From contig NZ_JAIMJB010000011.1 in NCBI RefSeq assembly GCF_021295345.1, positions 96,714-160,713 on the forward strand: a stretch of 64,000 nucleotides of DNA, read 5' to 3'. The DNA is from Motilimonas eburnea. Lineage in GTDB: Bacteria > Pseudomonadota > Gammaproteobacteria > Enterobacterales > CBDFNC01. Of the stretch, positions 24,955 through 48,792 are shown piece by piece. The translations under genes and the position numbers were made by a program. Under the pieces are notes generated by a model. That model saw only the letters and a list, made by a program, of their open reading frames with translations, made no database searches and had not been told where the DNA came from. Position 1 is the first letter of the stretch. Every line of letters starts with the position of its first letter.

Positions 24955-26571
24955 TTATTGTTCACGCCGCTGTTTGTGTAACTCGGACCACTTCAAGCCG
25001 AATTTGGCTAGGTATTTTTGCAGTCTGGTCGAGTCATTGACTTGCGCCTTCTTCTCTCGGCTCTTATCGAATAATTCACGCCCTGCAGAGGCCATATTAT
25101 GATGGCGTAAACAGACAGTGAGCACATAGTTCAGTTGGTGTGCATCAAATTGATCAAGCTCGGCGATGCTTTGCTCGTTCAGGTAATCACCTAATCTATT
25201 TATCGATTTTAATGCAGTAGGATTTTGCCAACAAAGTCGCAACCTTGCTATCTCTTCTTCTACATCGTCGAGTGTGATTCTTGACGAATCGGCTAAGGTG
25301 CACAGACGGGTAATGGCAGAGCTTAAATCGCGAAAGTTCCCTGACCAGATAGCTTCGCCCGACATGGCAAATTTTTCAAAGGTTAACCTCGCTTCCTTGT
25401 TAAAACGAACTTGTCGCCCATGCTTTTGCGCATATAGGCTTATCTCATAATCGATATTGGCAGGCAGATCTTCTTTACGTTCAGTCAGGGCTGGTAATTT
25501 ATAGGTCCACAGGTTGATCCTAGCGAATAAGTCCTCACGAAACATACCTTTGGCTATTTCGGCTGCTAACTCCTTGTTGGTTCCAGCGATAAGCTGGAAG
25601 TCACTGCTGACGGTTTTGTCACTGCCAACTGGGTGAAAGGTTTTATTTTCTATAGCATGCAAAAGCATCGCTTGCTCTTCTAAACCAAGCTCACCAATTT
25701 CATCAAGGAATAATATGCCTTGATTAGCCGTGAGTAGATATCCATTTCGCTCTTTTTGCGCGCCGGTAAATGCACCTTTGGTATGGCCAAAAAGCGCCGC
25801 CATGGCGTTTTCGCCCTTTAATGTGGCACAGTTGACGCTGACTAAATCTCCTTTAATCATTGAGCGGCGTTTCTTCAGTTGAAAAATGCGCATAGCGAGT
25901 TGGCTTTTACCGGCGCCAGTTGGGCCCGTGAGTAAAATCGGGTCGTTAGAGCGAATCGCCACCTTTTCGACTTGCGATATAAGATGATTAAAGTTGGCAT
26001 TCTTAGTTGCGATTCCGCCTTTTAAGAATGCCTTACCTTCTAAATGTTCCCGATCAAAGCGTGTGGCGAGTTGGTCATATTTAGATAGATCTAAGTCTAT
26101 GATATGCACTCGGCCGATGGACTTATTGGTGGCATATTTATCCGGAGATGTTTGAATCAGTCGACCAGGAAAGTGGCGGCTTTCAGTCAATAAATAGCTA
26201 CATATCTGTACAACATGAGTGCCTGTTGTGATGTGAAATAGATAATCACAGTGTTCTGTATCAAACGCTTGTTGTTGGCACCAATCATAAAGCTTGGCAT
26301 ACACTTCTTCAAAATCCCATGGATCACGAAAGTTTAGGTTATGTAGGGTGACGGTTGTTTCTGGTGAGACACTTTCAATATCAACCGCCACATTGTTAGC
26401 AAGGCGCTCAGAGTGATTGTCATGCAGCATATGCAAATGATCTATGACTAAATCATCTTGGCTACACAAGCTAATGTTGGGCCGCCAGCGAGCCCAGCGA
26501 TCAACGCGCTTACCGACAAAATCTAGCTTTGTGCCAATCAAACTGACCGCAATGGTTTTCTTTCTATTCAT
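24955..26571 (-). CDS. rtcR: RtcR, CARF-domain sigma54 activator of the RNA repair operon
   Basis: 538 residues. The N-terminal 180 residues form the RtcR CARF domain (I-A-V-S-L-I-G-T-K-L-D to H-I-T-T-G-T-H-V), a fold that binds RNA-derived or cyclic nucleotide ligands. The AAA+ domain has Walker A G-P-T-G-A-G-K-S (216-223), the sigma54-contact loop G-A-F-T-G-A (266-271) and Walker B I-L-F-L-D-E (about 286-291). A Fis-like helix-turn-helix closes the protein. In E. coli, RtcR silences itself through CARF until a ligand from damaged RNA appears. It is divergent from its likely target operon starting near 26752. Confidence 0.96.
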   Translation of the reverse strand: MNRKKTIAVSLIGTKLDFVGKRVDRWARWRPNISLCSQDDLVIDHLHMLHDNHSERLANNVAVDIESVSPETTVTLHNLNFRDPWDFEEVYAKLYDWCQQQAFDTEHCDYLFHITTGTHVVQICSYLLTESRHFPGRLIQTSPDKYATNKSIGRVHIIDLDLSKYDQLATRFDREHLEGKAFLKGGIATKNANFNHLISQVEKVAIRSNDPILLTGPTGAGKSQLAMRIFQLKKRRSMIKGDLVSVNCATLKGENAMAALFGHTKGAFTGAQKERNGYLLTANQGILFLDEIGELGLEEQAMLLHAIENKTFHPVGSDKTVSSDFQLIAGTNKELAAEIAKGMFREDLFARINLWTYKLPALTERKEDLPANIDYEISLYAQKHGRQVRFNKEARLTFEKFAMSGEAIWSGNFRDLSSAITRLCTLADSSRITLDDVEEEIARLRLCWQNPTALKSINRLGDYLNEQSIAELDQFDAHQLNYVLTVCLRHHNMASAGRELFDKSREKKAQVNDSTRLQKYLAKFGLKWSELHKQRREQ

Positions 26572-26607: not shown

Positions 26608-26725
26608 TTAAGGTTACTTTTATGTCTTTCGGTGCGCTAGCTTAAAATTGCTTCATTTTGCTGATCGGTTGTTTTTTTATTTAAATTCAGTTGTTTATTT
26701 GTATTTTAATTATTTTTTATTCAGT

Positions 26726-26741
26726 TGGCACGCAACTTGAT
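26726..26741 (+). promoter_or_regulatory. Sigma54 (-24/-12) promoter of the Rtc operon
   Basis: TGGCAC-GCAAC-TTGAT fits the consensus TGGCAC-N5-TTGCW except for A in place of the -12 C. Start is expected near 26752, exactly where a terminal RNA stem begins. Confidence 0.75.
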
Positions 26742-26751
26742 ATCTATAAAG

Positions 26752-26828
26752 TGCTGGCCATTTAGGTAGTGACTCAACCATCACTCCGGTGCACTGAACG
26801 TTGTGACTGTGTATTCCAAGCCCAGCAT
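26752..26828 (+). ncRNA. 5' domain of the Rtc leader RNA (closed stem)
   Basis: Directly at the predicted start, TGCTGG (26752-26757) pairs with CCAGCA (26822-26827), enclosing 64 nt. Inside is a hairpin with arms AGTGA (26768-26772) and TCACT (26781-26785), extended by GG/CC across a one-base bulge. No reading frame or ribosome site is evident. The folding was done by eye, and function is unknown. Confidence 0.5.
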
Positions 26829-26830
26829 AC

Positions 26831-26898
26831 ATTTAAGTAGCTCAATGGTAGAGCAACGGTTTTCCGTACGCGGAGGTTCGAATCCTTCCTTAAATGCA
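26831..26898 (+). ncRNA. tRNA-like element 1 in the Rtc leader (shrunken anticodon arm)
   Basis: Cloverleaf by eye: acceptor ATTTAAG (26831-26837) pairs fully with CTTAAAT (26889-26895). D arm GCTC/GAGC has loop AATGGTA (26840-26854). T arm GGAGG/CCTTC has the canonical loop TTCGAAT (26872-26888). In place of a 5-bp stem with 7-nt loop, the anticodon position is a 4-bp stem ACGG/CCGT closed by a TTTT tetraloop (26856-26867), so it cannot decode. The 3' end is GCA, not CCA. Total 65-68 nt, shorter than a tRNA. It lies downstream of a sigma54 promoter and upstream of rtcB, so it is probably a tRNA mimic induced by RtcR. Confidence 0.7.
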
Positions 26899-26967
26899 CA
26901 GGTAGCTCAACGGTAGAGCCGCGGTCATGCCGCTTGTTGTGGGTTCGATTCCCACCCTAATAAACCA
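26899..26967 (+). ncRNA. tRNA-like element 2 in the Rtc leader (shrunken anticodon arm)
   Basis: It immediately follows element 1. D arm GCTC/GAGC has loop AACGGTA (26905-26919). T arm GTGGG/CCCAC has loop TTCGATT (26939-26955). The anticodon position holds GCGG/CCGC with the 5-nt loop TCATG (26921-26933). The acceptor is reduced to AGG/CCT (26900-26902 with 26956-26958), and the tail runs AATAAACCA. The T arm is fully canonical, so tRNA-elbow binding proteins could recognise it, but it cannot act as a normal tRNA. The two elements share D-arm sequence, suggesting duplication. Confidence 0.6.
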
Positions 26968-26972
26968 AAAGC

Positions 26973-27121
26973 GAAAACCAAGGTTAGCAAGCCGAGGTTG
27001 CCTATGGCAGGTAAACGTAAGAGATAAAAAGTTAACAGCAAGCCGGATGCTCCCTGTTAATGGCAAACCTCAAACCTTTGCATGTTAAGCATTGCCCCCT
27101 TGCTAACAACACCCTGGTTTC
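26973..27121 (+). ncRNA. Long-range-stem RNA domain before the slipin gene (Y-RNA-like architecture)
   Basis: The two ends pair: AAACCA (26975-26980) with TGGTTT (27115-27120), then, after an asymmetric internal loop, GTTAGCAAG (26983-26991) with CTTGCTAAC (27099-27107). Nested inside are GAGGTT+GCC (26994-27002) with GGC+A+AACCTC (27062-27071), and TTAACAG (27032-27038) with CTGTTAA (27054-27060). A closed terminal stem with a bulge resembles bacterial Y RNAs encoded in Rsr-Rtc operons of other bacteria, but no Ro/TROVE gene is in this window and the known Ro-binding sequence was not recognised. It ends 15 nt before the slipin ATG. Confidence 0.55.
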
Positions 27122-27135
27122 AATAAGGAAAAGAC

Positions 27136-28290
27136 ATGTTTAGAACGACTCAGGTAATTTCAGAAAATGAACGCGTACTCGTGTTTAAAAATCAAGTGAT
27201 GAAGGATGTACTGCTACCGGGCAAGCATCAGCTCTGGGATCTGAAGCAAGAGCTTAACTTTATTCGATACGATATCAATGAACTCTTTTTTAGTGAGCCC
27301 AACGCGGAGCGTTTGTATCGCGATCATGACGTATTAAAGCCACATATTTTCTATCGCAAGTTACAGCCAAGTGAAGTGGGTTTACTTTATATCAATGAGC
27401 AATTAAGAGGCATTGTTGCACCGGGTGAGCATTTATATCTTTGGCAAGATGCGGGGGATATCCGTTTGGATACCTTGACCATAGATCAAAACATCGAAGT
27501 GGATGAACAACTGATGTTTTTAATTAAGCGAGCGGGGGCGAACAGTGCATCGCGATTAATTCGCAGTGTTCATAGCGTAGCGAGTAAGCCCATTGCCGAA
27601 GTGGTGGTAGCAAGAGAGCAGGTTGGTTTGTTGTATATCGATGGCCGGTTTAGCCAACGCTTATCGCCAGGGCAATACGCTTTCTGGCAGTTTAATCATG
27701 CCATTGAACTCAAGACCTTAGATTGTCGAACTCAGATGATAGAGATATCGGGGCAAGAGATCTTAAGTAAAGATCGCGTGACCTTGCGTATTAACCTTAC
27801 CGCCAGCATCAAGATCAGGGATGCTGAGTTGGTGGCGACAAGCGTCGAGAAGGTCGACGAGTTTATTTATAAAACCTTACAGCTTGCGCTGAGAGAGTCG
27901 GTTGGTACTAAGGCGTTAGACGATATCCTGTTAGACAAACTTTATGTTAACGAAACCGTCAAGGAGCTAGTGGCCGGGCAACTTGAAGCCATCGGCGTCA
28001 CTCTGGCTAACGTGGGCGTAAAAGACATTATTTTACCGGGTGAAATGAAAGCGATTTTGAATCAAGTGGTAGAAGCGCAAAAAGCGGCTGAAGCGAATGT
28101 GATCAAACGGCGTGAGGAAACCTCAGCGACGAGAAGTTTACACAATACAGCCAAGGTAATGGAAAACAACCCAACCTTAATGCGTTTAAAAGAATTGGAG
28201 GCCCTTGAAAAAGTGGCAGACCGTATTGGCAGCTTAACCGTGTTTAATGGCCTAGATGGACTGACTAACGGGCTGATTAAAATAGGTTAA
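27136..28290 (+). CDS. Soluble slipin/SPFH-family protein of the RNA repair operon
   Basis: 384 residues. A Band-7/SPFH domain covers about 155-300 (V-V-V-A-R-E-Q-V-G-L-L-Y-I-D-G and T-L-R-I-N-L-T-A-S-I-K-I), followed by a helical, coiled-coil-prone tail. There is no N-terminal membrane helix, unlike stomatins. The segment normally found once before the SPFH core appears three times: residues 9-34, 78-103 and 158-184, each ending P-G-x-x-x-x-x-W. AAGGAAA lies before the ATG. First protein of the operon; its role beside RtcB is unknown, possibly an oligomeric scaffold. Confidence 0.85.
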   Translation: MFRTTQVISENERVLVFKNQVMKDVLLPGKHQLWDLKQELNFIRYDINELFFSEPNAERLYRDHDVLKPHIFYRKLQPSEVGLLYINEQLRGIVAPGEHLYLWQDAGDIRLDTLTIDQNIEVDEQLMFLIKRAGANSASRLIRSVHSVASKPIAEVVVAREQVGLLYIDGRFSQRLSPGQYAFWQFNHAIELKTLDCRTQMIEISGQEILSKDRVTLRINLTASIKIRDAELVATSVEKVDEFIYKTLQLALRESVGTKALDDILLDKLYVNETVKELVAGQLEAIGVTLANVGVKDIILPGEMKAILNQVVEAQKAAEANVIKRREETSATRSLHNTAKVMENNPTLMRLKELEALEKVADRIGSLTVFNGLDGLTNGLIKIG

Positions 28291-28365: not shown

Positions 28366-29592
28366 ATGTGTAAAAATTATAACGTAATTGAACAGGAAGG
28401 AATGGCAACCATCAAGGCATGGACTAAGGGGGTGCCTTTTGAAGAGCAAGCGCAACAACAGTTAAGAAATATTGCCGGTATGCCATTGGTACATTCTCAT
28501 ATCGCCGTGATGCCTGATGTGCATTTGGGTAAAGGGGCCACCATAGGAAGTGTGATCCCTTCGGTTGATGCCGTGATTCCTGCGGCGGTTGGGGTTGATA
28601 TTGGCTGCGGTATGGTTGCGACAAAAACCACCCTGACGGCTAGTCAGTTGCCTGATAATTTGGCGGGTATTCGCCACGCATTTGAATCGGCTGTGCCCCA
28701 TGGCCGCACTCCAACGAGTCGCGGCCGCACCGATAGAGGGGCGTGGCATAACATTCCTGATGTGGTTGCAGGCGAATGGCAAAAGTTAGCGACACGCTTT
28801 GAAAAAATATGTGCTAAGCATCCTGCGATCCGTAACTGTAATCACGTGAATCATTTGGGAACCATGGGAACGGGTAATCACTTTTTAGAGCTGTGCTTAG
28901 ATGAAAACGATGCGGTTTGGATCATGTTGCATTCAGGTAGTCGCGGGGTAGGGAATCGAATTGGGACCTACTTTATCGAATTGGCCAAGAAAGAAATGCA
29001 GCGTCACCAAATTAATTTGCCCGATATGGACTTAGCTTATCTTTCAGAAGGAAGTGAATACTTTGATGACTATGTCGAGGCGGTGGAATGGGCGCAAGAT
29101 TTTGCTGCCAAAAATAGAGAGATCATGATGTTTAATGCCATAGCCGCCTTGCGTAAGCAACTGCCTGTTGACTTCTCTACCGCTGAGCTCGCTGTGAATT
29201 GCCATCACAACTATATCTCGCGAGAGCATCACTTTGGTAAAGACTGTTTTGTGACTCGAAAGGGTGCAGTGAGAGCACAAAAAGGCGAAATGGGGATCAT
29301 TCCTGGCAGCATGGGTGCGCGCTCATTTATTGTTCGTGGGCTTGGCAATCCAGAGAGTTTCAATAGTTGCAGTCATGGTGCGGGTCGGGTGATGTCGCGA
29401 ACACAAGCGAAAAAAGTGTACAACGTAAAGGATCAAATTGAGGCGACTCGCGGAGTTGAGTGTCGCAAAGATGAAGCCGTGATTGATGAGATCCCACATG
29501 CATACAAAGATATAGATAAGGTGATGGCCGCGCAGCAAGACTTGGTTGAGGTGGTATATACCTTGAAGCAAGTGGTGTGTGTCAAAGGATAA
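28366..29592 (+). CDS. rtcB: RNA-splicing ligase RtcB (GTP-dependent 3'-phosphate/5'-OH ligase)
   Basis: 408 residues matching E. coli RtcB throughout: H-I-A-V-M-P-D-V-H-L-G-K-G-A-T-I-G, V-G-V-D-I-G-C-G-M (manganese-binding Asp and Cys), G-N-H-F-L-E-L, H-S-G-S-R-G-V-G, N-C-H-H-N-Y, and C-S-H-G-A-G-R, whose histidine is guanylylated. RtcB seals broken RNAs bearing 2',3'-cyclic phosphate or 3'-phosphate, such as tRNAs cut by anticodon nucleases or toxins. TAGGAAAG precedes the ATG. A hairpin at 28317-28340 (TGCTC..GAGCA) sits between slipin and rtcB. Confidence 0.98.
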   Translation: MCKNYNVIEQEGMATIKAWTKGVPFEEQAQQQLRNIAGMPLVHSHIAVMPDVHLGKGATIGSVIPSVDAVIPAAVGVDIGCGMVATKTTLTASQLPDNLAGIRHAFESAVPHGRTPTSRGRTDRGAWHNIPDVVAGEWQKLATRFEKICAKHPAIRNCNHVNHLGTMGTGNHFLELCLDENDAVWIMLHSGSRGVGNRIGTYFIELAKKEMQRHQINLPDMDLAYLSEGSEYFDDYVEAVEWAQDFAAKNREIMMFNAIAALRKQLPVDFSTAELAVNCHHNYISREHHFGKDCFVTRKGAVRAQKGEMGIIPGSMGARSFIVRGLGNPESFNSCSHGAGRVMSRTQAKKVYNVKDQIEATRGVECRKDEAVIDEIPHAYKDIDKVMAAQQDLVEVVYTLKQVVCVKG

Positions 29593-29602
29593 GGAAAACA
29601 AG

Positions 29603-30637
29603 ATGTCTTGGTTAGTGATAGATGGTGCCCAAGGAGAAGGCGGAGGACAAGTGTTACGCACGGCGATGACCTTGTCGGTATTAACACAAACGCCCATTGA
29701 AGTGATCAATATTCGCGCGAACCGAAATAAACCCGGCCTGCTGCGCCAGCATTTAACGTCAGTCAATGCGGCACGAGAAATCTGTAACGGCACATTAGAG
29801 GGAGGCGTTTTAGGTTCGTCGCGAATCAAATTTTCCCCTGGCAAAGTCAAATCGGGTGATTATCACTTTGTTATCGGTACGGCGGGAAGCACAGTGCTCG
29901 TTTGTCAAACCATATTACCGTTACTTGCTCTTGCTGATTCCCCTTCTAGGGTGACATTTGAAGGAGGAACACATAATGGTATGTCGCCGTCCCTTTGTTT
30001 TTTTAATGAGTCTTACTTGCCCGTGCTAAAGGCAATGGGCCTGAATTGTCGTGTACAGATCTCGAGTCTGGGCTTTTATCCTGCGGGTGGCGGCAAGTGG
30101 CAACTGACCGTAGAGCCAACGATGTCGCTTAAACCCGTTGAGCTGCTCACGTCGGTTGAGGCAGTGGGTCAAATTCAAAAACAAGGGCATTTGAGTGCTC
30201 TGATGAGTGCCTTGCCGGATGTGATTGGCCAAAAAGAAGTGACCGAAGCAAGAAAGCTACTAGGCTGGGATGAAGCCACTGCCGATGTCTTGCGATTTAA
30301 AACCAATGGGCCAGGAAATAGTTTCCAGGTAAAGATAAAAGGTGCACTACACACTAGCTTATTTGAGCAAGTCGGTCAGTTCGGTGTGTCGGCCGAGCGG
30401 GTGGCTAAACGTTGTGTTGGCCGTGTTAAGAAGTTTTTAAAGGCGGAAGTCGCGGTGGAGCAGCATTTAGCCGATCAATTACTCGTGCCTATGGCTTTGG
30501 CTGGTGGCGGGCAGTTTACGACCACTCAACCCAGTTTACATATGACGACCAATATCGACGTAATTAAGCAGTTTTTATCCATCGATATCAATGTAGTCGA
30601 AGTCGATAGCGGATTTTGGCAGGTCAAGGTTGGTTAG
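29603..30637 (+). CDS. rtcA: RNA 3'-terminal phosphate cyclase RtcA
   Basis: 344 residues with the RtcA hallmarks: D-G-A-Q-G-E-G-G-G-Q-V-L-R-T at the start, N-I-R-A-N-R-N-K-P-G-L, and G-G-T-H-N-G-M-S-P-S, plus the histidine-containing C-terminus (H-M-T-T-N-I). It adenylates RNA 3'-phosphates and makes 2',3'-cyclic ends, which RtcB accepts, and can also adenylate 5'-phosphates. An upstream ATG-like start would overlap rtcB. The ATG at 29603 has AAGGAAAAC before it and lies 10 bp after the rtcB stop. Confidence 0.96.
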   Translation: MSWLVIDGAQGEGGGQVLRTAMTLSVLTQTPIEVINIRANRNKPGLLRQHLTSVNAAREICNGTLEGGVLGSSRIKFSPGKVKSGDYHFVIGTAGSTVLVCQTILPLLALADSPSRVTFEGGTHNGMSPSLCFFNESYLPVLKAMGLNCRVQISSLGFYPAGGGKWQLTVEPTMSLKPVELLTSVEAVGQIQKQGHLSALMSALPDVIGQKEVTEARKLLGWDEATADVLRFKTNGPGNSFQVKIKGALHTSLFEQVGQFGVSAERVAKRCVGRVKKFLKAEVAVEQHLADQLLVPMALAGGGQFTTTQPSLHMTTNIDVIKQFLSIDINVVEVDSGFWQVKVG

Positions 30638-30663
30638 CGAGATGAATTATGCAAGGTACTAAA

Positions 30664-31494
30664 ATGGATACGAAGAGGGTTGTCAGCGCCGACGTTATTA
30701 AGCCCAGCGTCAAGGCGGAGATAATGCGCCGAATTGCCAAGGCGGAGCAAGAACATGATGTTAAGGTGTTGTTTGCTGTGGAATCGGGTAGTCGGGCTTG
30801 GGGATTTGCTAGTCCAAACAGTGATTATGATGTGCGCTTTATTTATGCCCATCGTCAGGAGTGGTATCTCACCCTAGATCTTGAAAGTAAAAGAGATGTG
30901 ATTGAATACCCCATAGTCGATGAAATCGATATTAACGGCTGGGATGTGCGAAAAGCCCTTAAGCTATTATGTAAGTCTAACCCATCCTTTATTGAGTGGC
31001 TTCACTCACCGATTGTGTACGTGGATGATGGTGTGTTTGCCAAGCAAGTAAGGGAGCTACTCCCTCAGGTAGTTTCTTCACAGAAAGGTATTTACCATTA
31101 CCTGCACATGGCTCAGGGGAATTATCGTGGTTATTTGAAGCAAGCACGTGTGCCATTGAAAAAGTACTTTTACGTACTCAGACCCCTGTTGGCCATTATG
31201 TGGTTAGAAAGGTACCAGCAGCCTGCGCCAATCGAGTTTGATGTGTTAAGGCAGCTGATATCAAACAATAGCGCGCTAGATGAGGCGATTAGTGATTTGG
31301 TGGCGAAAAAACGTCAAAGCGCTGAAAAAGAATACGGGACGAGTATTCCTATCATTAATCAGTTTATTGAAGCTGAGTTGGCAAGGAATCTGGCGCCTGT
31401 TTCACGCCATAGGGATCCAGAAGCTAGCTTCGCGCAATTGAATGCGTTGTTCCAATGCACTATTTGTCATCCAGCGGAAAAGGTTGTCGCTTGA
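30664..31494 (+). CDS. RlaP-type nucleotidyltransferase (RNA repair-associated)
   Basis: 276 residues of the DNA-polymerase-beta superfamily. The active site is readable: E-S-G-S-R-A-W-G-F (Gly-Ser pair) followed by S-P-N-S-D-Y-D-V-R-F with the two metal-binding aspartates, and a third acidic strand D-E-I-D-I-N. The C-terminal helical region ends with a C-x-x-C-H segment. The RlaP family (PF10127) recurs beside RtcB and other RNA ligases and is proposed to add nucleotides to damaged RNA ends; this is not proven. A longer start at 30649 exists, but AAGG sits 8 nt before the ATG at 30664. Last gene of the operon. Confidence 0.85.
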   Translation: MDTKRVVSADVIKPSVKAEIMRRIAKAEQEHDVKVLFAVESGSRAWGFASPNSDYDVRFIYAHRQEWYLTLDLESKRDVIEYPIVDEIDINGWDVRKALKLLCKSNPSFIEWLHSPIVYVDDGVFAKQVRELLPQVVSSQKGIYHYLHMAQGNYRGYLKQARVPLKKYFYVLRPLLAIMWLERYQQPAPIEFDVLRQLISNNSALDEAISDLVAKKRQSAEKEYGTSIPIINQFIEAELARNLAPVSRHRDPEASFAQLNALFQCTICHPAEKVVA

Positions 31495-48727: not shown

Positions 48728-48763
48728 TCTATTATTAGATTACTAGTCGATTATTCGGCTAGA

Positions 48764-48792
48764 GGCTGGTGCTTAATGGCACCGGCCTTTTT
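48764..48792 (+). terminator. Attenuator between rplL and rpoB
   Basis: GGCTGGTGC (48764-48772) with GCACCGGCC (48779-48787), one G-T pair, six-base loop and T5. A partial terminator at this place is known in E. coli and sets the ratio of ribosomal protein to polymerase. No new promoter was obvious before rpoB. Confidence 0.7.

What the first reader, a model, noticed from the sequence alone, without database searches (positions are those of the whole stretch)
26752..27121. RtcR-controlled operon begins with about 370 nt of fully structured, apparently non-coding RNA
Between a sigma54 promoter (26726-26741) and the slipin gene lie four consecutive folded modules: a closed 5' domain, two tRNA-like elements and a long-range-stem domain. 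Paired segments recur from the expected start site to 15 nt before the first ORF, which a random leader would not show. Co-induction of RNA modules with the ligase, cyclase and nucleotidyltransferase suggests the RNA is a substrate, decoy, sensor or guide for RNA repair. Y-RNA-plus-Rtc operons are known from Salmonella, but this arrangement (two tRNA mimics, slipin, RlaP, no Ro protein in view) is not one I recognise as described.
Basis: partly seen in the sequence, partly recalled or inferred. Interest (0 to 1): 0.93.

Follow-up and report, generated by a model that had tools for sequence, protein, structure and literature searches.

The report
Slipin-linked tRNA-mimic RNA in repair operon
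The first 360 or so bases of this bacterial RNA-repair operon encode a conserved multi-part RNA structure with two tRNA look-alikes that lack a normal anticodon loop; it sits beside one gene (a slipin), was missing from the slipin-free operons examined, and likely works as that protein's RNA partner in tRNA repair.

Summary
The leader has four conserved modules: a 5' domain at the expected sigma54 start site, two tRNA-like elements and a 3' rod. Folding energy alone is unconvincing (z -1.05), but covariation is strong: 20 of 26 pairs (5' domain) and 28 of 35 (3' rod) change on both sides, with 0/500 shuffles as high. The tRNA-like elements keep D and T arms but mostly not a decoding anticodon loop. 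A tRNA-type T arm precedes slipin in 60 of 61 rtc-linked locus clusters, also where slipin follows rtcB or rtcA; 12 examined rtcR-rtcB operons without slipin have neither tRNA-like element nor 5' domain. The RNA belongs with slipin, which shows no membrane helix and carries extra N-terminal beta units. Most likely it is the RNA partner of a slipin scaffold for tRNA repair, as Y RNA is for Ro; that step is inferred. From recall, Burroughs and Aravind (2016) proposed a tRNA-like RNA for SPFH repair systems, so this is a new variant of a known kind.

The parts
24955..26571 (-). rtcR: CARF-type RtcR domain plus sigma54 activator
   Evidence: Pfam RtcR 1.2e-78, Sigma54_activat 3.2e-48
26725..26739 (+). 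sigma54-type -24/-12 promoter TTGGCAC-N5-TTG; start site expected about 12 bases on (rule recalled)
   Evidence: sequence; in 31 of 37 close-group leaders a site of this pattern lies 53-66 bases before the conserved motif of the 5' domain
26748..26831 (+). 5' domain D1: closing stem, GTGA/TCAC hairpin and GGTGC...GTATNCC arm with a small inner stem
   Evidence: model R1 72.9 bits; covariation
26831..26895 (+). tRNA-like element a: canonical D and T arms, 4-bp/4-nt anticodon hairpin
   Evidence: Rfam tRNA 47.0 bits; R3; hairpin parse
26896..26963 (+). tRNA-like element b: canonical D and T arms, shortened anticodon loop, weak acceptor stem
   Evidence: Rfam tRNA 36.9 bits over 26900-26958; R3 59.1 bits; hairpin parse
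26979..27110 (+). 3' domain D3: long irregular rod closed by GTTAGCAAG/CTTGCTAAC
   Evidence: model R2 115.1 bits; covariation
27136..28290 (+). slipin: two extra N-terminal beta units before the SPFH/Band_7 domain, then a long helix; no membrane-spanning stretch
   Evidence: Pfam Band_7 3.7e-27; hydropathy and repeats; AlphaFold2 model
28366..29592 (+). rtcB RNA ligase
   Evidence: Pfam RtcB 8.1e-128
29603..30637 (+). rtcA RNA 3'-phosphate cyclase
   Evidence: Pfam RTC 1.1e-78
30649..31494 (+). rlaP nucleotidyltransferase
   Evidence: Pfam RlaP 6.6e-87

Best explanation
The leader of this rtcR-linked operon encodes a conserved four-module RNA structure (5' domain, two tRNA-like elements without a normal anticodon loop, 3' rod) that accompanies the neighbouring slipin gene and likely acts as the RNA partner of that slipin, which would hold the co-encoded repair enzymes together while the tRNA-like elements would occupy or gate their tRNA-binding sites. 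Shown here: the modules, their covariation, the conserved D and T arms with degraded decoding features, the separate identity of each tRNA-like module, the tie to slipin with absence in the slipin-free operons examined, and a slipin sequence without a membrane-spanning stretch. Inferred: that RtcR, whose operon in Salmonella is regulated by damaged tRNAs, switches on RNA and proteins together; that the RNA is used as an RNA rather than only as a leader, perhaps released by tRNA-type processing; that it binds slipin; and that tRNA mimicry excludes or positions substrates, somewhat as Y RNA does on Ro (recalled).
For: Covariation of all parts. R1, built on 25 leaders and run unfiltered on 19 more diverged slipin loci, finds the 5' domain in 14 of 19 at E 0.0012 or better, each 6-27 bases before the tRNA-like element (with element positions), and in 12 of 19 class-level loci at E 1e-4 or better (L124 duplicates L039). 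A T arm precedes slipin in 60 of 61 rtc-linked clusters against 2 of 80 rtcB/rtcR coding segments. Twelve rtcR-rtcB operons without slipin have no R3 or R1 match, including L117, whose rtcR (part) is 78% and rtcB 88% identical to the window's. RNA and slipin stay together when slipin lies after divergent rtcR (40 clusters, one, L042, without a T arm) or after rtcB/rtcA/rlaP (12 clusters). Of 47 parsed elements from 24 leaders, 42 are closest to a foreign element of the same position class (last or not last) and none to a sister module. Canonical 5-bp/7-nt anticodon arm with U33: 22 of 22 parsed control tRNAs of this genome (14 of 36 unparsed) against 7 of 56 elements in the close group. Slipin: best 19-residue hydropathy 1.24. 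The Salmonella operon is regulated by damaged tRNAs (PMC7790460: title and start of abstract in listings; passages).
Against: No expression or binding data. The RNA lies just upstream of slipin in every locus where I found it, so cis control of slipin is not excluded. The 3' rod model does not reach most diverged loci, and tRNA-like copy number varies from one to three in the close group, so no fixed stoichiometry. 10 of 26 elements in the diverged group keep a canonical anticodon arm with U33, and ARAGORN accepts 46 elements in 30 of 50 upstream stretches as tRNA genes, so not all have lost tRNA features. With default filters R1 missed most diverged loci; unfiltered it still missed 5 of 19 (L070, cut by the contig start, and L077-L080). 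4 of 23 slipin clusters without an rtc gene in the fetched stretch showed no T arm within 1100 nt; one of them, L129, has a tRNA-like element further upstream.
Confidence: 0.48

Rival explanations
1. Decoy or bait: the tRNA-like elements would mimic tRNAs to absorb the RNases (toxins, phage or defence nucleases) whose damage turns the operon on.
For: Tandem tRNA-like elements encoded with repair enzymes; anticodon hairpins vary in loop length and sequence. For the tRNA-like domain of Salmonella YrlA, competitive inhibition of the nuclease was suggested (PMC7790460 passages).
Against: Most hairpins in the close group are not canonical anticodon arms with U33 (7 of 56 are), a poor lure for anticodon nucleases. 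Modules are position-specific types. The tie to slipin is not explained.
Confidence: 0.18
2. Cis-acting leader: the RNA would set slipin (and downstream) expression by folding, tRNA-like processing or protein binding in the untranslated region.
For: Directly upstream of slipin wherever found, also inside operons.
Against: The 3' domain ends 25 nt before the window's start codon and 16-68 nt before the first matched slipin residue in the 25 other loci with full R2 matches, so it does not reach the ribosome site at a fixed place; no Rfam cis-regulatory family reaches gathering there. Its size and separately maintained tRNA mimics are unusual for a plain leader.
Confidence: 0.19
3. Signal source: cleavage of the tRNA-like elements would yield fragments that feed RtcR's CARF domain, amplifying induction.
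For: The Salmonella operon is regulated by damaged tRNAs (PMC7790460); slipin and RNA lie first after divergent rtcR in most clusters.
Against: The 12 examined RtcR operons without slipin lack the RNA, so RtcR does not need it; the RNA also lies after rtcB/rtcA.
Confidence: 0.08
4. Degenerate tRNA genes caught between promoter and slipin, without function.
For: They score as tRNAs and many have lost decoding features.
Against: Double changes in stems, invariant D arm and T-loop columns, module-specific likeness across genera, and conserved flanking domains.
Confidence: 0.03

Closest known systems
SPFH/Band-7 RNA-repair module with a 'novel tRNA-like molecule' (Burroughs and Aravind 2016; recalled, not read)
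   Same: SPFH gene in an RtcB repair operon with a tRNA-like RNA beside it
   Different: Here a 5' domain, two or more non-equivalent tRNA-like modules and a 3' rod are resolved, with a control for slipin-less operons; whether that paper shows these parts could not be checked
rsr-yrlBA-rtcBA operon with Ro60/Rsr and YrlA Y RNAs (Salmonella)
   Same: RtcR-regulated; non-coding RNA with a tRNA-like part encoded with RtcB and RtcA; a binding protein encoded alongside
   Different: No Ro in this assembly; YrlA score 25.7 bits in the window and 32.7 in L003 against a gathering score of 69; slipin in place of Ro; whole cloverleaf-like elements in tandem
Vault particle (major vault protein plus vault RNA; the RNA from recall)
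Anabaena TrcR regulon
   Same: rtcB, a slipin gene and a tRNA operon are under one regulator in translation stress (PMC10272220, passages)
   Different: Unlinked genes, repressor TrcR and no RtcR homologue there

Membership tests
Y RNA (YrlA type) | matches the YrlA covariance model at gathering score | tested here: not met
   25.7 bits against 69; 32.7 in relative L003
Y RNA (YrlA type) | partner Ro/TROVE protein in the genome | tested here: not met
   0 TROVE matches in G000, 99.95% complete
functional tRNA | Rfam tRNA score over gathering | tested here: met
   47.0 and 36.9 bits against 29
functional tRNA | 5-bp stem, 7-nt anticodon loop with U33 | tested here: not met
   window elements have shortened hairpins; 7 of 56 in the close group are canonical against 22 of 22 parsed controls; ARAGORN calls neither window element
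SPFH/Band-7 repair module with tRNA-like RNA | SPFH gene in an RtcB operon | tested here: met
   Pfam
SPFH/Band-7 repair module with tRNA-like RNA | tRNA-like RNA beside the SPFH gene | tested here: met
SPFH/Band-7 repair module with tRNA-like RNA | same RNA as that described in 2016 | not testable with these tools
   paper not held
RtcR/sigma54 RNA-repair operon | divergent rtcR, sigma54-type site, rtcB and rtcA | tested here: met
RtcR/sigma54 RNA-repair operon | induction through RtcR | not testable with these tools
   needs expression data
T-box or other catalogued riboregulator | match to an Rfam cis-regulatory family at gathering score | tested here: not met
   only tRNA reaches gathering in the leader
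vault-like particle | MVP repeat-shoulder-cap architecture | tested here: inconclusive
vault-like particle | closed shell assembly containing RNA | not testable with these tools
   needs purification and electron microscopy

The most novel reading that the evidence does not exclude
Bacteria carry a small vault-like ribonucleoprotein for RNA repair: a soluble, repeat-bearing slipin assembles a ring or cage whose built-in RNA is the 5'-domain/tRNA-mimic/rod transcript, with each tRNA mimic serving a different docking site for RtcB, RtcA, RlaP or broken tRNA.
Probability: 0.16. Interest if true: 0.9.

Novelty: new variant of a known kind. Interest (0 to 1): 0.64.

Why it matters
RtcB/RtcA repair operons have known enzymes but uncertain substrates and cofactors. 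A conserved RNA that comes with slipin and was missing where slipin was missing points to a second protein-plus-RNA pair beside Ro and Y RNA, with distinct tRNA mimics that can be deleted one by one. It makes the role of slipins in RNA repair directly testable, and covariance models of the 5' and 3' domains can annotate loci now read as odd tRNA genes.

Tried and rejected
Whole-leader folding energy as proof: rejected, z -1.05. Y RNA: rejected on score and on absence of Ro. Ordinary tRNA genes: rejected for the window's elements. RNA as part of every RtcR operon: rejected. That control used 12 of the 16 RtcR-positive, slipin-negative genomes; left out were G019 (RtcR at a contig end) and the weak RtcR matches G025, G221 and G372. 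In 4 of the 12 the loose T-arm pattern occurs somewhere in the 4.1 kb (L108, L109, L110, L112), none between rtcR and its divergent neighbour. Stand-alone 5' domains: R1 hit 8 of 394 genomes of the order (strict filters); two of the 8 (G064, E 3.9e-4; G227, E 2.9e-5) have no slipin or RtcR match and no T arm or rtc match in 3 kb, so I take them as chance. 3' rod in diverged loci: not convincing (unfiltered, 16 loci: only partial hits in L024 at 6.8e-4 and L079 at 0.0083 are under E 0.01; filtered on 32 loci: L060-L065 hit). Vault likeness of the N-terminal units alone: weak. An early strict sigma54 pattern missed most sites and was replaced. Dropped rows: L020 and L040 from the anticodon parse; 14 of 36 distinct control tRNAs unparsed; five weak hits left out of the alignment counted, and L051, whose leader is identical to that of L013, not searched there; 13 near-duplicate loci of 97 removed before the census; L023 left out of the protein alignment. 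The census pattern is a T-arm regular expression, looser than R3 and able to catch ordinary tRNA genes; in the 19 class-level loci 17 have R3 matches under 1e-4 and two (L125, L131) only 0.045 and 0.063. The split into close and diverged element groups is mine. Literature: ten searches listed no description of this RNA in the held open-access library; subscription papers are mostly missing.

Full report
What is in the sequence. Between divergent rtcR (24955-26571, minus) and slipin (27136-28290) lies a sigma54-type site (26725-26739) and then, from the expected start site on, four modules: a 5' domain (26748-26831), two tRNA-like elements (26831-26895 and 26896-26963) and a 3' rod (26979-27110). 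Slipin, rtcB, rtcA and rlaP follow. The leader of L013 (Motilimonas sp. E26) is printed identically in L051, from same-genus genome G003, so the window probably comes from a Motilimonas species; this is an inference.

Is it more than chance? By energy alone, barely: the whole leader has z -1.05 and the 3' part z -2.11. Comparative evidence decides. A search with the slipin gave 49 loci. In the 5' domain, aligned to the model over 36 distinct sequences (25 leaders built the model), 20 of 26 pairs change on both sides and the covariation score is 0.310 against 0.143 for shuffles and at most 0.093 for slid partners; its closing stem is the weak part, paired in 66.5% of cells. That alignment was fitted to the structure, which favours it; the 3' domain alignment was not fitted to a model, though the structure was derived from it, and there 28 of 35 pairs change on both sides, with a score of 0.566 against 0.228 and 0.161. 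The tRNA-like elements show 51 double-change cells against 17.1, while further pair types do not stand out (118 of 500 shuffles). Shuffles do not keep relatedness; the slid controls do. The firmest test is placement in loci not used for building. With default filters R1 reaches only L060-L065 and L069 of 32 further loci in place; without filters it finds the 5' domain in 14 of 19 diverged loci at E 0.0012 or better, each 6-27 bases before the tRNA-like element (positions). In 12 of 19 class-level loci it scores E 1e-4 or better: ten lie 6-28 bases before an R3 element, in L125 the element is matched by its T arm only, and in L137 a T-arm-only stretch lies between. L126, L128 and L131 have weaker hits in place (0.0014-0.012) and L133 one at 0.34; a stray hit elsewhere in L126 at 7.7e-4 shows where chance begins; in L129 and L138 the element lies within 60 bases of the stretch's end, so the domain would be cut off; L130 has none in place. 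L081 and L083, also in that call, have hits in place at 6e-4 and 1e-3, and L087 none.

What the tRNA-like elements are. The 25 invariant columns among 20 aligned elements lie almost all in the D and T arms and their junctions, including a D-loop guanine and the T-loop. The anticodon hairpin keeps a stem, but its loop ranges from three to eleven bases in my parse. A 5-bp/7-nt arm with U33 in the canonical place occurs in 22 of 22 parsed tRNAs of this genome (14 of 36 distinct ones unparsed), in 7 of 56 elements of the close group and in 10 of 26 of the diverged group. CCA near the end is inconsistent (14 of 56 and 16 of 26 by a loose test). ARAGORN accepts 46 elements in 30 of 50 upstream stretches, not the window's. 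Within a leader the modules are different types: of 47 parsed elements from 24 leaders, the nearest foreign element is of the same position class (last or not last) in 42, and none is closest to a sister module. By eye the arrays of L003-L005, L010, L012 and L046 hold three types; the window keeps the second and third, and L006, L008 and L014 the first and third. Same-genus L013 has one element only.

What the RNA goes with. After removal of near-duplicates (97 loci to 84 clusters), a T arm lies within 1100 nt upstream of the first matched slipin residue in 60 of 61 clusters with an rtc gene in view (the exception is planctomycete L042) and in 19 of 23 without; 2 of 80 rtcB or rtcR coding segments match the same pattern. 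Slipin follows divergent rtcR in 40 clusters and follows rtcB, rtcA or rlaP in 12, and the RNA moves with it. The converse control: 12 of the 16 RtcR-positive, slipin-negative genomes of the order sample were fetched; their rtcR loci have no R3 match and no R1 match under default filters, all 12 carry rtcB near rtcR, and none shows slipin there. In the order sample slipin is in 31 of 394 genomes (E 1e-20) and RtcR in 43 of 394; in the class sample slipin is in 21 of 369 (E 1e-60). The distribution is patchy.

How it most likely works. Shown: sigma54-type site, modules, covariation, loss of decoding features in the window and most close relatives, tie to slipin. Known elsewhere: the Salmonella repair operon is regulated by damaged tRNAs, and YrlA carries a tRNA-like part that was proposed as a competitor of the nuclease (PMC7790460: title, start of abstract, passages). 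Inferred: tRNA damage activates RtcR here; RNA and slipin are made together; the RNA is bound by slipin or by enzymes on it; the tRNA elbow mimics hold or gate tRNA sites. The RNA's place just upstream of slipin leaves cis control open. The decoy idea is weakened, not excluded, by the changed anticodon loops.

What is known. Of the library I saw passages of PMC7790460, PMC6514570, PMC7824862, PMC10272220 and PMC13086221, and searched the text of PMC2636767 for four terms without a hit. PMC13086221 reports an SPFH gene (PA14_60630) inside the rtc locus of Pseudomonas aeruginosa; the passages report no difference for its deletion in pyocyanin, protease, swimming, biofilm and oxidative-stress assays, and the word tRNA does not occur. 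PMC10272220 reports a slipin gene, rtcB and a tRNA operon under one repressor in Anabaena. From recall, the abstract of Burroughs and Aravind (2016) names SPFH/Band-7 modules with 'a novel tRNA-like molecule' as cognate RNA; I could not read it. I therefore call this a new variant of a known kind: the pairing was probably proposed, while the 5' and 3' domains, the module types and the slipin-less control were not seen by me in print, with the searches named under Tried and rejected.

Noticed in passing
L133 493-3870: A slipin locus with rtcB and the tRNA-like RNA also holds many intact-looking tRNA genes on both sides of slipin (13 ARAGORN calls in 4.1 kb, one of them the likely tRNA-like element), recalling the Anabaena slipin/rtcB/tRNA-operon regulon.
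   Followed up: no
L066, L067 and L073-L075: Ordinary-looking tRNA genes (His, Ser, Leu; Asn, Lys) lie near slipin besides the tRNA-like element.
   Followed up: no
L024 4001-5590 and L026-L032, L034: These Pseudoalteromonas slipins are longer, with a doubled N-terminal match; L024 shows five beta units in place of three.
   Followed up: partly
L117: An operon with rtcR (part) 78% and rtcB 88% identical to the window's lacks both slipin and RNA, while G374, placed in the same genus, has both: loss or gain as one unit.
   Followed up: partly
L023 4001-5148: The slipin frame is shifted near residue 44 in this contig; read as it stands and left out of the protein alignment.
   Followed up: no
L042 and L043 upstream of slipin: Planctomycete and deltaproteobacterial leaders share a GC-rich CCGGCGTCCCGC motif and tRNA-type T-arm remnants, perhaps a far relative of the 5' domain (by eye).
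   Followed up: no
window 48731-48788: Rfam match to the Pseudomonas sRNA P26 just over its gathering score (38.3 against 36).
   Followed up: no
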